Positions 4,254-9,808 of a DNA stretch of 64,000 nucleotides are shown here, piece by piece. The DNA lies in contig PASN01000009.1 of assembly GCA_002711995.1 (NCBI GenBank), positions 1 through 64,000 of the forward strand. The letters run 5' to 3'. Position 1 is the first letter of the stretch. Each line of letters opens with the position of its first letter. This DNA comes from Halobacteriovoraceae bacterium. Lineage in GTDB: Bacteria > Bdellovibrionota > Bacteriovoracia > Bacteriovoracales > Bacteriovoracaceae. The notes beneath the pieces were generated by a model. It ran no database searches, was not told the DNA's origin, and was given only the letters and a program-made list of their open reading frames with translations. Both the position numbers and the translations under genes were made by a program.

Positions 4254-4979
4254 TTAGTTCAAGCAGTAGTTTTCTTGGGCCCTAAGCACAATCTTTTTTC
4301 TTGTTAATTTTGCCTCATCAGTGGCTGCGTTTAAGAAGTTATTCTCCACTGAAACTAGGTCTGTTGATCCATCAAACCTATAAGCATTGACCTTTACGCC
4401 TCTTACACTTAGCTCTGCAAGGCCTCCTTTATCATCGGTATAAATCTTTACCTTGCAGCCATTGTTTCTTGTTCTCATTAGTCTGAAGAGAGCTCTACTC
4501 TCGTCTGCCATATTCTTTTTGTATGCTGCCGCGTAGGTTGATGAATATACATAGTTGTCATCATCCAGAATGTTCTGGGATCTTAACGCTTCATGAAGAA
4601 AGAAGATATCATCCACATAGCTTATTGAATTAAGTTTTTCGTTCCATTCGTTCTTCTTTTCGACAGAACAGTCTACTCTTATTTCTCTAGAGTTCTCTTT
4701 AAAGACCCATGCCAGTTTATTGTGATACTTCAGAGTTTTCATTTGCTCATCGGAAGCGCATAAAACATTCATATCAAGTTCAACGACCATCGCTAAAGAT
4801 AGATAGTTGAAGTTTAAAAGTTCTTTGGCGTCTTCTGACATGTATTCGATCTCAGTAACAACATCCTTAATTCTTTCTTTAACCGCGGTCTCAAGTGGAT
4901 GCCCACCACCCTCACCGACTCCAGCGAACACTTTTGCACCCAAAAGAGCTGCGATTACAATTGATTTCATTCTTTTCAT
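4254..4979 (-). CDS. Secreted protein of unknown function
   Basis: A 241-residue protein with a signal peptide (MKRMKSIVIAALLGAKVFA) and a mature N-terminus GVGEGGGHP. AGGAG lies 7 bases before the ATG. It is last in a minus-strand set, starting 9 bases after the TIGR02147 regulator gene ends, and is followed by a terminator. The mature part has Cys residues and no motif I recognise. Sitting in one transcript with a TIGR02147 protein and a secreted DUF4105-like protein, it may belong to the same stage-specific output; that is inference. Confidence 0.65.
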   Translation of the reverse strand: MKRMKSIVIAALLGAKVFAGVGEGGGHPLETAVKERIKDVVTEIEYMSEDAKELLNFNYLSLAMVVELDMNVLCASDEQMKTLKYHNKLAWVFKENSREIRVDCSVEKKNEWNEKLNSISYVDDIFFLHEALRSQNILDDDNYVYSSTYAAAYKKNMADESRALFRLMRTRNNGCKVKIYTDDKGGLAELSVRGVKVNAYRFDGSTDLVSVENNFLNAATDEAKLTRKKIVLRAQENYCLN

Positions 4980-4988
4980 ACTTAACTC

Positions 4989-5801
4989 CTATTTTTGCAG
5001 TGGAAATAATCCTACTTCCAATGCATATACTTTATCTTTATTACCTGACTCCAAAAGCTTTGACATGGCCTCGTTAAACTCAGAGATTAGCTTACGTGCC
5101 TCTGGCATTAGTTCCTCGTCTATACACATGGTCATGCTTGTCATGCTTCTTTTTTCAATCGGAAACTCTTCGATGGCCTCGATGGCCTTTTCTCTAATTT
5201 GAATTTGCTTATTTCTTCTCGCAACAGATGTTGCGGTGTACATTTCAGTAAGTCTTAACTGGTCCTGACTTGCCTTGTAATTTCCATTAACTTCTTCAAG
5301 AAAGCCCAGGTTAAGAAGTCTTTTAATGGCAACCTTCACTTTTAGTTCGTCTACACCAAGCTGCTCTGATATCCACTTAGTGCAGGACTTAAAGTCCTTA
5401 AGCTTAGTCATCTCAAATATAGTAAAACAGTACCACTCGCTGACACTGTGATAGTAGTCGTTTTGAAGCTCTCTAAATTTTAATTTCCCCAGGGTGTTAC
5501 TGTCGACTTTGTACTTTTTGATTGCTGGAGGCACACGCTGCAGGCTTCTTTTCTTTTGAGCAAGAACAATCGAGTCAATAAATCTTTGTCTTTGCTCCAT
5601 ATCAACTGAGAGTTTATCAATTATTTTTTCACCAAACTTTAACGAAGGCGTTCTTTTTGCATTTAGGACAAGTGAAAGCACTCCAGAGTTGACCCCCAGA
5701 GCTTTTGAAAAGGCCCTCATAGAGTAACTTGGATTTTTCTTCTTTCTAAGAAGAAGCTCATTCTCAAGCACTTTAATGTAGTATTTTTCTACTTGTTCCA
5801 T
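4989..5801 (-). CDS. TIGR02147-family (DUF4423) putative transcriptional regulator
   Basis: A 270-residue protein matching the TIGR02147 pattern: an N-terminal helix-turn-helix-like region with MRAFSKALGVNSGVLSLVLN (residues about 25-45, the family's F-S-x-x-LG-xx-SGxLSxVLxG-x-R block), then a KLKFRELQNDYYHSVSEWYC segment, a winged-helix-like region and a C-terminal alpha-helical part with VARRNKQIQ. The family is frequent in Fibrobacter and Bdellovibrio-type genomes and is thought to be regulatory, but targets are unknown. A TTG at 5807 is an alternative start; I prefer the ATG at 5801. It begins 10 bases after the stop of the DUF4105-like gene and precedes another secreted-protein gene. Confidence 0.8.
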   Translation of the reverse strand: MEQVEKYYIKVLENELLLRKKKNPSYSMRAFSKALGVNSGVLSLVLNAKRTPSLKFGEKIIDKLSVDMEQRQRFIDSIVLAQKKRSLQRVPPAIKKYKVDSNTLGKLKFRELQNDYYHSVSEWYCFTIFEMTKLKDFKSCTKWISEQLGVDELKVKVAIKRLLNLGFLEEVNGNYKASQDQLRLTEMYTATSVARRNKQIQIREKAIEAIEEFPIEKRSMTSMTMCIDEELMPEARKLISEFNEAMSKLLESGNKDKVYALEVGLFPLQK

Positions 5802-5811
5802 AACCAACTAT

Positions 5812-7179
5812 TTAGTAAGCATACAAAGCGAATTGACCGTCTTCTTCAATTACTCCACAGCCATTTAAAAATTCCTTAGTTTTTAGATTCACGCATTCTC
5901 TATCTAGAAGCTTTAAAACTTCTCCACTTTTAGTCATTGGGATTTTAACTTTATAGCTTTGGGCCCCACCCGATCCTCGTCTATTCACTTTTACAATATT
6001 AATTGCCATTAATTGCTCATCTAAATCATATTGTCCAAGTGTGAACTTAATCACATCACCTCGTTTCTTTTTGATCCCATTCAATCTCATTTTTTGGGCC
6101 AATGGCCTCGCTGTTTCCGCGACAATTTTATTATGAAGAGTGTAAGGATTTTCTTCCTTTTGTTTTTGGCTTTTCAGATGGCGACTGAAAGCATTTGCGC
6201 TAAATATTTCCTTTGGTAAGTTGCTTCTTTCGTAGTCAATCAGTTTTTGGGCACACACCTCATCTTCACAAAGATTATATTGAGCGGGATTGGCCTCAAA
6301 GCTTGCGGACATTGCCTCCGACTCATACTCTGACTTAAACTTCTCAATCATGACTTTTGTGTATTTAAAATGAAGATAGCGATCAAATGAAAGAAACTTA
6401 ACCACAGAACCAATTCCATACTTGTAGGCGAATTTTGTTAATAATTCTTCGTTAATTTGTTCATATGTTAGGATGTTTTTTTCTTTTAGCTCCTCCAAAA
6501 TTTTTGGAGTATTTTTAGTTGAAGAGGTTACCTTCTCAGATGCCGTGACCGAAACTCCAGCCTTCTTATAATATTTCTTGCTGTTTATTGGAACGAAGGG
6601 CACATTATTTAGCGGAATCCCCGCCGACTTCAATAACTTTGAAACGGCAACGATACAGTTGTTGTTTATGAACTTATACGTTCCTAGAACGGAAGTATCA
6701 GCGTATGCGTTTTTTAATTTATCAAATAAAGAGTTTTTAAGTTCTTCATTTAATGGAATGGTTATTCTTTCAAGAGGTCTTGATTCATTAATAATGTATT
6801 TGTCCCAAAAGTAATAAAAATAGTCTGTGTCAAACTTTAATGGGAAGCTGCCATAGAGACCTTTTGCGTAAAGGGAAAGAATAGACTCTTCAGCATCAAG
6901 CGGAACGTCCGCAACCAAGCTAAGTGCCACATTGTTATAATAGTGTTTTTCGTTTTTATTTATGAAAACCATGAAGGCATGTCCCCAACGACTGAAGATA
7001 GGACCACCTTCATATGAACCAGCAACATGAATATCCACTCCAATAATGTCTTCCTGGCTAGCAAACAATTCATCCATTACGATTTCGGTTGGTGTATCAA
7101 GCCCTGAAGCTTCCACTACAGTGGAAGCACTAAGCATTATAACCAGGGCCAGAGAATATAAGTTCAACAAATTTTTCAT
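5812..7179 (-). CDS. Secreted DUF4105 (Lnb N-terminal)-like protein
   Basis: A 455-residue protein with a signal peptide (MKNLLNLYSLALVIMLSAST). The ATG at 7179 is chosen over an upstream in-frame start because AGGG lies just upstream and the signal peptide starts there. Residues about 55-190 resemble the DUF4105 domain: SRWGHAFMVF early and a later TYKFINNNCIVAVSKLL with the conserved N-C pair, an arrangement suggestive of a papain-like cysteine hydrolase (His from GHAF, Cys from NNC). The C-terminal 250 residues are not recognised. It is first in a set with a TIGR02147 regulator and a secreted protein, and carries the repeated leader element upstream (7301-7490). The enzymatic role is inferred, not shown. 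Confidence 0.55.
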   Translation of the reverse strand: MKNLLNLYSLALVIMLSASTVVEASGLDTPTEIVMDELFASQEDIIGVDIHVAGSYEGGPIFSRWGHAFMVFINKNEKHYYNNVALSLVADVPLDAEESILSLYAKGLYGSFPLKFDTDYFYYFWDKYIINESRPLERITIPLNEELKNSLFDKLKNAYADTSVLGTYKFINNNCIVAVSKLLKSAGIPLNNVPFVPINSKKYYKKAGVSVTASEKVTSSTKNTPKILEELKEKNILTYEQINEELLTKFAYKYGIGSVVKFLSFDRYLHFKYTKVMIEKFKSEYESEAMSASFEANPAQYNLCEDEVCAQKLIDYERSNLPKEIFSANAFSRHLKSQKQKEENPYTLHNKIVAETARPLAQKMRLNGIKKKRGDVIKFTLGQYDLDEQLMAINIVKVNRRGSGGAQSYKVKIPMTKSGEVLKLLDRECVNLKTKEFLNGCGVIEEDGQFALYAY

Positions 7180-7300
7180 TTTAAAATCCCTTGTGTTTAA
7201 GGCCTTCCAAAGTGATCTTGGTAGCAGTATTTGAAAGTTCATAAACATGAATGATTTCTCCCGTTAACTCATGGCCTAATAGTTTTTTGGTCTTGTTAAC

Positions 7301-7490
7301 AGGTTTATACACAAACACGACACTCAGCACAAATCTAAACGAAACATAACGCTTCAGATAAAACCATCTTTTTGAAGCATGGAATTATTTCATGCGTGAG
7401 CACCTAAGTATTTAAATTATAGAGGAATTTGATAGCTGTTAGACTGGCAACAGCGAAATTTTCATAGGCCGTATAAAGTTTGAGCAGTTT
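7301..7490 (-). repeat. Shared leader element, copy A
   Basis: About 190 bp upstream of the DUF4105-like gene that aligns colinearly with 9571-9760 upstream of the tandem secreted family, with about one base of net indel. Shared blocks on the plus strand include AGGTTTATAC at one end and AGGCCGTATAAA at the other. Both copies keep an inverted repeat GCTTCA...TGAAGC (here 7351-7356 with 7373-7378) although the loop sequence differs. It lies entirely in non-coding DNA and precedes genes on the same strand, so it is likely a promoter/5'-UTR element used by both units. The wider gap 7180-7744 holds no gene I can support. Confidence 0.65.
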
Positions 7491-7681
7491 TAAAAGTGAT
7501 GAAGGCTTCAATAGAATTAAAACTGTAGGTAAAAGCACATGGACATGCCAACCTGTTCAGCACAGAAATCCTGTAGCTGCCAAAATTTTTGTGCAAAATG
7601 GTGAGACATAATTGTTATAAAGAAAAGTGACAAGTTTTATTGCATTTACTGAATTAAGTTTGCAAATAAGGGCCTGAGAAT

Positions 7682-7714
7682 ATGGGCAAGAATTTGTTTA
7701 TACTTCTTGCCCAT
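7682..7714 (-). terminator. 11-bp perfect hairpin downstream of the tandem family
   Basis: ATGGGCAAGAA (7682-7692) and TTCTTGCCCAT (7704-7714) form a perfect 11-bp stem with an 11-base loop, about 30 bases beyond the stop of the fourth, truncated family copy. No long T-tract follows on either strand, so it is either an imperfect terminator or an mRNA 3'-end stabiliser for the tandem secreted operon. Confidence 0.5.
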
Positions 7715-7744
7715 TAGAGGGGCTTAGTAATTTAGGTTTTTAAC

Positions 7745-7828
7745 TTATTGGGAAGTTAGACTTTCCTTGGTAGGTCTAACGAAGTCACCATTCTTATTAG
7801 TACAAGCAAGTCGATCATAGTTAATCTG
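7745..7828 (-). pseudogene. C-terminal stub of a fourth tandem-family copy
   Basis: Directly after the stop codon of the third intact paralogue (7834) the minus strand encodes about 27 codons, beginning QINYDRLACTNKNGDF and continuing RPTKESLTSQ before TAA at 7745-7747. This aligns with the C-termini of the three full paralogues (ACT, FFRPT, KESL blocks) but has no start and no N-terminal part. It is best read as the leftover of an unequal-crossover or deletion event within the tandem array. Confidence 0.75.
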
Positions 7829-7833
7829 CTAAC

Positions 7834-8370
7834 TTAGTAAGTTAGGTTCTCTACGACAAGGGACTTAAGACTCTCCTTAGTTGGTCTAAAAAAATCTCCA
7901 TCATCTGTACAAGCAGACACGTCATGATTAACCTGCTTCACCTCTTGGATCACTTCATAATCTGTGGGGATTACAGCATTTGGATCCTGCCCAATTTCTC
8001 TTTTTACATTCTTGATAAAGCTTGCAAGAATTGGTGATTGACCCGGTTCTATTTCATAAATAGCACCATAAATAACCTTGGCCGCATACTCTTCACTTTC
8101 ATTTAAGTCAGTAAAGTAATCATAGGCATGAACTGAGGTTGTCATTGCGCCAAGGCCTAGGTTTAAAGATCCAGCGGCCAGTCCTGAGCCTGCAGCAACA
8201 AACGCACCACTCATCACACTTATTCCACCAGCAACCGTCATATCGTGCTTATTCATCACATCAAAGTCACTATCTATCACTTCTTGGTAGCAATCTGCAT
8301 GGGCCGTGCCTAAACCAAGAGTTAAAACAGACATTGTCGTAAAAAGTATATTCTTAGATTTTGTAAACAT
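7834..8370 (-). CDS. Tandem secreted Cys/Gly-rich protein, copy 3
   Basis: A 178-residue protein starting at the ATG at 8370, preceded by GGAGAATATT; the longer reading from 8385 merely translates this Shine-Dalgarno. It has a signal peptide ending HA/DC, a Cys two residues into the mature protein, a Gly/Ala-rich hydrophobic stretch (residues about 45-80, with GG, SG, AAG spacing like a glycine zipper), an IGQD..AVIPT block, and a conserved tail containing ACT, FFRPTKESL and VVENLTY. The two Cys probably pair. It is a paralogue of the next two genes. A membrane-inserting or oligomerising segment is possible from the Gly-rich stretch, but no function is known to me. Confidence 0.7.
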   Translation of the reverse strand: MFTKSKNILFTTMSVLTLGLGTAHADCYQEVIDSDFDVMNKHDMTVAGGISVMSGAFVAAGSGLAAGSLNLGLGAMTTSVHAYDYFTDLNESEEYAAKVIYGAIYEIEPGQSPILASFIKNVKREIGQDPNAVIPTDYEVIQEVKQVNHDVSACTDDGDFFRPTKESLKSLVVENLTY

Positions 8371-8397
8371 AATATTCTCCATCAATTTTTTAAAAAT

Positions 8398-8949
8398 TTA
8401 GTAACTAAGCTTCTCTACAACAAGAGAATTAAGACTTTCTTTTGTTGTCCTAAAAAATTCTCCGTTTTCATTGGTACATGCAGAAAGGTCATTATTAGCC
8501 TGTTTTACTTCTTGGATAACTTCATACTCCGTAGGGATTACAGCACTAGAGTCTTGTCCAATTTCTCTTTGGACACCCTTTATAAAGCTTGCCATGGTAG
8601 CTGACATATGACTTTCATCTACGCTTGATTGATCTAGTACCTCATAGGCGTAAGCTTCACTTTGGCTCAAATCATCCATGTTGCTGTAGACTAAGACTCC
8701 TGTTGAAGAAAGAGCACCGGCTCCTAAGGAAATTGGCCCACTTGCTAATGCCCCAACCCCAGTAGTTGAAATAGCCGATGCAATTCCAGTTATGGCGGCA
8801 GAGCTAAAAAGTCCATCTTTGTCGTAACTAGATATCTTGTAATCACTGTTGTAAATCTCTGAAACACAACTTGCTTGGGCCGTATTAACTAGATTTACAC
8901 TTAATACAGTAATAGCTACTAGACACAGTTTGCTTGAATTCTTAAACAT
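8398..8949 (-). CDS. Tandem secreted Cys/Gly-rich protein, copy 2
   Basis: A 183-residue paralogue of its two neighbours. The start at 8949 follows the same GGAGAATATT signal seen at copy 3. A signal peptide ends QA/SC; the central Gly/Ala/Ser-rich hydrophobic stretch is present (AITGIASAISTTGVGALA and following), then the acidic DLSQSEAYAYEVLD block, QREIGQDSSAVIPTEYE, and the tail with ACTNENGEFF and LVVEKLSY. Copies 1 and 2 are closer to each other in the SEAYAY and SATMASFIKGVQR region than to copy 3. It lies 24 bases from copy 1 and 27 bases from copy 3, so the three form one transcript. Confidence 0.7.
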   Translation of the reverse strand: MFKNSSKLCLVAITVLSVNLVNTAQASCVSEIYNSDYKISSYDKDGLFSSAAITGIASAISTTGVGALASGPISLGAGALSSTGVLVYSNMDDLSQSEAYAYEVLDQSSVDESHMSATMASFIKGVQREIGQDSSAVIPTEYEVIQEVKQANNDLSACTNENGEFFRTTKESLNSLVVEKLSY

Positions 8950-8973
8950 AATATTCTCCATTATTTTTTTAAA

Positions 8974-9519
8974 TTAGTAAGTTAGGTTCTCTACGACAAG
9001 TGAGTTAAGACTTTCTTGAGTAGGTCTAAAAAATTCTCCGTTTTCATCGGTACACGCAGTAAGGTCATTGTCAATCTGCTTCAGCTCTTCCACAACTTCA
9101 AACTCTGTAGGGATTACAGCACTAGAGTTCTGCCCTATTTGTCTTTGGACACCTTTTATAAAGCTTGCCATAGTCGGAGACATATAGCTTTCATCTATGC
9201 TTGAGTAATCTAATACTTTATAAGCGTAAGCTTCACTTTGGTCTAAATCATCCATTACTGATGCTGCCACAGTAGAACTTGTAATAGCGGCTGCACCTAA
9301 TGGGAATGCTGCTGCTGCCAAACCTTCACCTGCCAAGGTAAAGGTACCCGCAATTCCTAAGACTGCAGCTTGTCCATTTAAATGCTGCATACCGTATTGG
9401 TCAATTTCAAAGTCGCTGTCCGCGATTGCTTCTGTACAAGATGCGTTCGCAAGTTGGCCTAAGTTAATTGTCGATACAGCTAAACCTACAAGAGCTAAAT
9501 TTTTAAATTTCTTAATCAT
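8974..9519 (-). CDS. Tandem secreted Cys/Gly-rich protein, copy 1
   Basis: A 181-residue protein, first gene of the tandem operon. AGGAGAATATT stands directly before the ATG, the same initiation signal as in the other two copies. Signal peptide (MIKKFKNLALVGLAVSTINL, cleavage after NA), mature Cys immediately after, a Gly/Ala-rich hydrophobic middle, QRQIGQNSSAVIPTEFE, and the tail with ACTDENGEFFRPT and LVVENLTY. The tail of copy 1 is nearly identical at DNA level to that of copy 3 (TAGTAAGTTAGGTTCTCTAC on the plus strand), hinting at gene conversion. The upstream region carries copy B of the leader element shared with the DUF4105-like gene. Confidence 0.7.
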   Translation of the reverse strand: MIKKFKNLALVGLAVSTINLGQLANASCTEAIADSDFEIDQYGMQHLNGQAAVLGIAGTFTLAGEGLAAAAFPLGAAAITSSTVAASVMDDLDQSEAYAYKVLDYSSIDESYMSPTMASFIKGVQRQIGQNSSAVIPTEFEVVEELKQIDNDLTACTDENGEFFRPTQESLNSLVVENLTY

Positions 9520-9570
9520 AATATTCTCCTATTCATTTTGACTTTCTAAGTCGTTGTTCGTTTCGTTGAG

Positions 9571-9760
9571 AGGTTTATACAAAACAACGACGCCAGGCAC
9601 AACACTAAGTGAAACATAGTGCTTCAAATAAACATAGAAACTTTGAAGCATGGAGTTATTTCACAGCTGTGTGCGTAAGTCCTTAAATTGTAATGGAGAT
9701 AGGTGCTATATTAGAGATGATAGGTGAAGATTTCACAGGCCGTATAAAATTTAAACAGCA
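9571..9760 (-). repeat. Shared leader element, copy B
   Basis: Homologous to 7301-7490. Conserved features on the plus strand are AGGTTTATAC at 9571, a GTGAAACATAGT block, the inverted repeat GCTTCAAA (9621-9628) with TTTGAAGC (9642-9649), a CATGGAGTTATTTCA block, and AGGCCGTATAAA near 9737. In the sense of the downstream genes the element ends about 50 bases before the start codon, so it covers the likely promoter and 5' leader of the tandem secreted operon. The gap 9520-9837 contains only this element, a short spacer and the nqr terminator. Confidence 0.65.
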
Positions 9761-9780
9761 CTAAGTGACTGAAATTTCAT

Positions 9781-9808
9781 AAAAAAAGGGAAGGCCTTCG
9801 CCTTCCCT
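9781..9808 (-). terminator. Terminator of the nqr operon
   Basis: On the minus strand AGGGAAGGC, loop GAAG and GCCTTCCCT form a 9-bp GC-rich stem followed by seven T residues (9787-9781). It lies about 30 bases after the nqrF stop and is a textbook Rho-independent terminator. Confidence 0.9.

What the first reader, a model, noticed from the sequence alone, without database searches (positions are those of the whole stretch)
7301..9760. A ~190-bp leader element shared by two neighbouring secreted-protein units
Sequence shows: 7301-7490 and 9571-9760 align end to end in non-coding DNA, and each lies upstream of a minus-strand unit of secreted proteins. A small inverted repeat (GCTTCA...TGAAGC) is kept in both although its loop has diverged, which argues for a selected RNA hairpin or operator. 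Inference: a common promoter/5'-UTR module that co-regulates the DUF4105-like gene, the TIGR02147 regulator and the tandem family.
Basis: partly seen in the sequence, partly recalled or inferred. Interest (0 to 1): 0.72.

Follow-up and report, generated by a model that had tools for sequence, protein, structure and literature searches.

The report
Duplicated promoter of a secreted-protein operon
Two similar stretches of non-coding DNA in a Bacteriovoracaceae genome are most likely two copies of one ordinary gene switch (a promoter with an upstream protein-binding site); the copy arose when a piece of an operon was duplicated in place and its gene was lost, so this is a tidy but fairly ordinary case of an operon being split in two.

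Summary
Minus-strand stretches 9775-9555 and 7487-7287 align at 69% (E 5e-15) and are the only two copies in the genome. A congeneric genome (G001) carries one copy only, in front of one operon that holds everything the window splits between two: tandem genes, DUF4105/Lnb_N gene, TIGR02147 gene and a secreted protein. The window's second copy is therefore best read as a local duplicate of the operon's 5' end. It still carries a ribosome-binding site and ATG at the tandem genes' distance from the -10 box (61 against 60 nt), and now sits directly before the DUF4105 gene.

The 'leader' reading is probably wrong. All three copies share TTGTGC-N17-TATAAA, a constant-length, diverged-spacer pattern typical of a sigma-70 core promoter. 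That puts the GCTTCA...TGAAGC dyad at about -83 to -54, always 18 bp before the -35 box: an operator position, not an RNA hairpin. The dyad arms show no covariation, and the element is not coding. Co-regulation of the two units is plausible but unmeasured. No dispersed regulon was found in the own genome or in 128 family relatives.

The parts
9519..9795 (-). Upstream copy (W_up): regulatory region of the tandem-gene operon, from just after the nqrF terminator to the start codon
   Evidence: blastn within genome, alignments, upstream boundary
7246..7530 (-). Downstream copy (W_down): duplicate of the same region, now in front of the DUF4105 gene
9621..9650 (.). Dyad TGCTTCA-N-TGAAGC(A), proposed operator of W_up (about -83 to -54)
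   Evidence: pattern search; alignment
7351..7379 (.). Dyad of W_down, proposed operator
   Evidence: pattern search; alignment
9574..9602 (-). Core promoter TTGTGC-N17-TATAAA of W_up
7304..7332 (-). Core promoter TTGTGC-N17-TATAAA of W_down
7246..7262 (-). Leftover ribosome-binding site (GGGAGAA) and ATG of a lost tandem gene; the ATG (7248) is in frame with the DUF4105 ORF
   Evidence: 61 nt from -10 against 60 nt in W_up; anchored alignment beaten by 7 of 5000 shuffles
7721..7834 (-). C-terminal remnant of a fourth tandem gene, with in-frame stops
7834..9519 (-). Three tandem secreted-protein genes behind W_up
4254..7179 (-). DUF4105/Lnb_N gene, TIGR02147/DUF4423 regulator gene and secreted-protein gene behind W_down
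   Evidence: syntenic order in G001
9784..9808 (-). Terminator-like hairpin with T-run after nqrF, separating W_up from the nqr operon
   Evidence: fold; a homologous terminator is found in G001

Best explanation
The two copies are duplicates of one promoter-operator region. In the ancestor, as still in G001, one promoter after the nqr terminator drove one operon: tandem secreted proteins, then a DUF4105/Lnb_N enzyme, a TIGR02147 regulator and another secreted protein. In the window's lineage the 5' end of the operon (promoter, 5'-UTR and at least the start of a tandem gene) was duplicated in place, and the gene behind the inner copy was lost. That promoter was left directly upstream of the DUF4105 gene, so the operon became two units behind the same switch. 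Proposed mechanism: sigma-70 RNA polymerase starts at the conserved TTGTGC-N17-TATAAA (predicted +1 near 9567 and 7297), and a DNA-binding protein binds the dyad at about -83 to -54. Because the -35 box is weak, it is probably an activator; the operon's own TIGR02147 protein is the first candidate. Shown: homology, copy number, synteny, conserved boxes and fixed spacings. Inferred: direction and order of the duplication, promoter use, identity of the regulator, and co-expression.
For: Two copies only in the own genome by blastn, pattern and covariance model. One copy and one operon in G001. The window's tandem proteins are closer to each other (59 and 46%) than to those of G001 (31-33%), and the region upstream of the dyad is more alike between the two window copies (54%) than to G001 (43%); both fit duplication after the split. 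Leftover RBS and ATG in the inner copy at the right distance and a decayed tandem gene tail beside it. TTGTGC-N17-TATAAA identical in all three, the only site among the six best promoter scores of every copy, with one further occurrence in the genome and none in the reversed control. Dyad end to -35 start gives 18 bp in all three (coordinates). Substitutions unique to the inner copy are no more numerous than those unique to the outer one (9 against 15 in the core), so it is not visibly decaying.
Against: Only three sequences exist, so the conserved blocks rest on little divergence data. TTGTGC matches the -35 consensus at only three of six positions. A second -10-like box (TACAAT/TATAAT/TATAAT) lies upstream of the dyad, and if it is the one used the dyad would be transcribed. 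The RBS/ATG match is only modest without the positional anchor (15 and 63 of 1000 shuffles). The older state with two copies, one lost in G001, is not excluded.
Confidence: 0.66

Rival explanations
1. Transcribed leader: transcription starts at the upstream TATAAT-like box (about 9692 and 7421), the 5'-UTR is about 170 nt, and the dyad forms an RNA hairpin that controls translation or transcript stability.
For: TATAAT-like box kept in all three; a consensus two-tier hairpin can be drawn (21-28/69-76 and 35-41/59-65) with one compensatory pair between the two window copies; W_up folds better than shuffles (z -2.9).
Against: No shared -35 for that box. The inner stem has no compensatory change: six of seven pairs invariant, one G-U. 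The best folds of the individual copies differ and W_down is not better than shuffles (z -0.4). No Rfam match.
Confidence: 0.2
2. The second copy is a passive fossil: the duplication is real but the inner promoter no longer matters, and the DUF4105 unit is served by read-through or another promoter.
For: Gene decay all around it (remnant 7721-7834, lost gene after it); no canonical terminator found between the tandem genes and the inner copy.
Against: Both promoter hexamers, their 17-bp spacing, the dyad and the 18-bp dyad spacing are all intact in the inner copy, and it has not changed faster than the outer copy.
Confidence: 0.12
3. The stretch encodes a conserved small protein starting at ATGCTTCAA.
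For: Open for 40 codons in W_up and 36 in G001 (frames).
Against: Substitutions between W_up and G001 fall evenly on codon positions 14/16/14; W_down stops after eight codons; no clear ribosome-binding site.
Confidence: 0.02

Closest known systems
Sigma-70 promoter with an upstream dyad operator (class I activator position, about -70)
   Same: Two hexamers with a 17-bp spacer whose sequence varies but whose length does not; A at the predicted +1 in all three; dyad at a fixed distance upstream; weak -35 box.
   Different: The operator sequence matches none known to me and its regulator is unidentified; promoter use is unmeasured.
Operon splitting by local duplication of a promoter and gene loss
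   Same: Related genome has one operon behind one copy; the window has the same genes in the same order behind two copies, with gene remnants at the seam.
   Different: Nothing essential; the order of events is inferred from two genomes only.
FliA-type attack-phase promoters of Bdellovibrio (TTAAG-N16-CCGATA; PMC3627812)
   Same: Related predatory bacteria and, in part, secreted or surface proteins (setting from general knowledge and PMC3627812).
   Different: The conserved boxes here are TTGTGC and TATAAA, not the FliA consensus.

Membership tests
Sigma-70 core promoter | -10 hexamer close to TATAAT | tested here: met
   TATAAA (5 of 6) in all three copies
Sigma-70 core promoter | -35 hexamer close to TTGACA | tested here: inconclusive
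   TTGTGC, 3 of 6 matches, but identical in all three
Sigma-70 core promoter | Spacer of 16-18 bp, length kept while sequence varies | tested here: met
   17 bp in all three with diverged spacers
Sigma-70 core promoter | Transcription start 6-8 nt after the -10 box | not testable with these tools
   No RNA data are held; A is conserved 7 nt after TATAAA
Structured cis-regulatory RNA leader | Compensatory base changes in the helix | tested here: not met
   Inner stem: 0 of 7 pairs with changes on both sides; outer stem: 1 pair
Structured cis-regulatory RNA leader | Same fold predicted in each copy, better than shuffled sequence | tested here: not met
   Folds differ; z -2.9, -0.4, -2.8
Structured cis-regulatory RNA leader | Match to a described family | tested here: not met
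   Only a sub-threshold mir-16 match at E 0.67, outside the copies
Dispersed regulon element | Further copies before other genes | tested here: not met
   Two copies in the own genome, one in G001, none convincing in the rest of 129 family genomes
FliA (sigma-28) promoter | TTAAG-N16-CCGATA boxes | tested here: not met
   Read from the conserved blocks of the alignment

The most novel reading that the evidence does not exclude
The dyad TGCTTCA-N15-17-TGAAGC, with outer TGAAA...TTTC half-sites, is the operator of the TIGR02147/DUF4423 regulator encoded in the same operon. It would be a first candidate target site for a regulator family that is numerous in these bacteria and has no described binding site in the papers that could be searched. 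After the duplication one regulator would control two units.
Probability: 0.25. Interest if true: 0.45.

Novelty: new member of a known kind. Interest (0 to 1): 0.27.

Why it matters
It is a readable snapshot of an operon being split: the undivided version survives in a relative, and the seam still carries remnants of lost genes. It also narrows the possible operator of a TIGR02147 regulator to a testable 30-bp site; nine genes of that family lie in this genome, and only one paper in the searched library mentions the family's domain at all.

Tried and rejected
RNA leader with selected hairpin: no covariation in the inner stem, inconsistent folds, no Rfam match. Small protein: no codon-position signal. 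Dispersed element: blastn, exact pattern and covariance model find no further convincing copy. A weak hit at G000:C8:145531 (E 0.42) shares only GTGTGC-N17-TATAAA-like letters and no dyad; best hits in other family genomes (E 0.09 and above) are what 129 searches give by chance. More relatives: the genome-contig scan returned only the G001 record again, viral contigs none; the nqrF-downstream region of G002 and eight other family genomes shows other genes. AlphaFold of the tandem family gave a low-confidence model (mean pLDDT 57.6), so no fold search was made. The tool's terminator scan reported none near nqrF, but the hairpin with T-run at 9784-9808 is plain in the sequence and fold.

Full report
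What is there. They lie in gaps between genes. The outer copy (W_up) follows a terminator-like hairpin behind nqrF (9784-9808) and precedes three tandem genes for small secreted proteins of no known family (9519-7834). The inner copy (W_down) precedes a DUF4105 (Pfam Lnb_N) gene, a TIGR02147/DUF4423 regulator gene and a further secreted-protein gene (7179-4254).

The related genome. Among 59 genomes searched (own and relatives), one other than the own, G001 of the same genus, has the element, once. It is the genome of a Bacteriovoracaceae metagenome bin: the genome-contig scan returned a contig of the same length, 23,794 bases, under that title. There the order after nqrF is: one copy, tandem gene, tandem gene, DUF4105, TIGR02147 and secreted protein, with only about 10 nt between the second tandem gene and DUF4105. 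So G001 has one operon behind one copy where the window has two units behind two copies. Nine other family genomes, including the second congener held (G002), have other genes after nqrF. The tandem family is not found with confidence outside G000 and G001 in 129 family genomes.

Origin of the second copy. The inner copy aligns with the outer one beyond the stated limits: upstream as far as the 3' arm and T-run of the nqrF terminator, downstream through the ribosome-binding site to an ATG. That ATG (7248) is 61 nt from TATAAA; the true start of the first tandem gene is 60 nt from its TATAAA. An alignment anchored at TATAAA is beaten by 7 of 5000 shuffles; without the anchor the match is weaker (15 and 63 of 1000). 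The leftover ATG is in frame with the DUF4105 ORF, which could therefore also be read with a 23-residue extension; the likely start is 7179, as in G001. Beside the inner copy, 7834-7721 is the decayed tail of a fourth tandem gene with in-frame stops. The window's tandem proteins are nearer to each other than to those of G001, and so are the outer parts of the two copies (54% against 43%). Together this fits a duplication in the window's lineage followed by loss of the gene behind the inner copy. The reverse history, with loss of one copy in G001, needs more events but is not excluded.

What the element does. Three-way conservation is in blocks: AATAAYTCCATGCTTCAAA, TGAAGC, TGTTTC, TTGTGC, TGTATAAAC, and the ribosome-binding site. 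TTGTGC and TATAAA are 17 bp apart in all three copies while the spacer between them has diverged. This is the only promoter-like site among the six best of each copy, and the exact pattern occurs three times in the genome, two of them here, with none in the reversed control. An A is conserved 7 nt after TATAAA, where transcription would begin. I therefore place the core promoter at 9602-9574 and 7332-7304. The dyad then lies at about -83 to -54, and its end is 18 bp from the -35 box in all three copies (coordinates). A fixed phase to the promoter, a symmetric sequence and a weak -35 box suggest a DNA operator for an activator. That step is inference, and so is the candidate regulator, the TIGR02147 protein of the same operon.

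RNA hairpin or not. The inner stem pairs in all three copies, but six of its seven pairs never vary and the seventh changes on one side only; an outer stem has one compensatory pair and two pairs broken in G001. Predicted folds differ between copies, and only two of three are better than shuffled sequence. No Rfam family matches. A TATAAT-like box upstream of the dyad keeps the transcribed-leader reading alive, though it has no shared -35. The element is not a small gene: substitutions are spread evenly over codon positions.

Is the inner copy active. Its promoter boxes, dyad and both spacings are intact, and it has not changed faster than the outer copy relative to G001, which argues against a dead fossil. 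No expression data could be consulted. An inverted repeat at 7684-7712 lies between the tandem remnant and the inner copy; it lacks a T-run, so it is not a canonical terminator.

Known relatives. DUF4105 proteins have been identified as lipoprotein N-acyltransferases (Lnb) in Bacteroides, within the permuted NlpC/P60 group with catalytic His and Cys (stated in PMC12994826). The window protein keeps RWGHAF and NNNCIV motifs that fit this, also in G001. Attack-phase promoters mapped in Bdellovibrio are mostly FliA-type (PMC3627812), which the conserved boxes here are not. A DUF4423 protein is listed among proteins raised during growth in prey (PMC12546842), with no binding site given.

Verdict. 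It is a shared promoter region, but most likely a local duplicate of one promoter with an upstream operator, not an RNA leader or a dispersed regulatory module.

Noticed in passing
window 7684-7712: Perfect 9-bp inverted repeat GGGCAAGAA-N11-TTCTTGCCC (11 pairs in the fold, z -4.5) right after the decayed tandem gene; no T-run, found once in the window.
   Followed up: partly
window 7721-7834: Remnant of a fourth tandem gene (C-terminal part with in-frame stops).
   Followed up: yes
L047:6606-8389 (G000 contig C10): A DUF4105 paralogue followed at once by a gene for a small secreted Ala/Gly-rich protein; only very weak similarity to the tandem family, but a similar pairing of genes.
   Followed up: partly
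L084:1122-4031 (G004; coordinates on the reverse complement of the locus): In the few kilobases after nqrF another family member has a DUF4105-like gene flanked on both sides by nearly identical 105-residue secreted-protein genes.
   Followed up: no
window 7834-9519: The tandem secreted family is confined to two congeneric genomes among 129 of the family and diverges fast (31-59% identity), with a conserved C-terminal half predicted to be helical.
   Followed up: partly
G000, nine places: Nine TIGR02147-family genes in this genome and none in 14 well-known control genomes.
   Followed up: no
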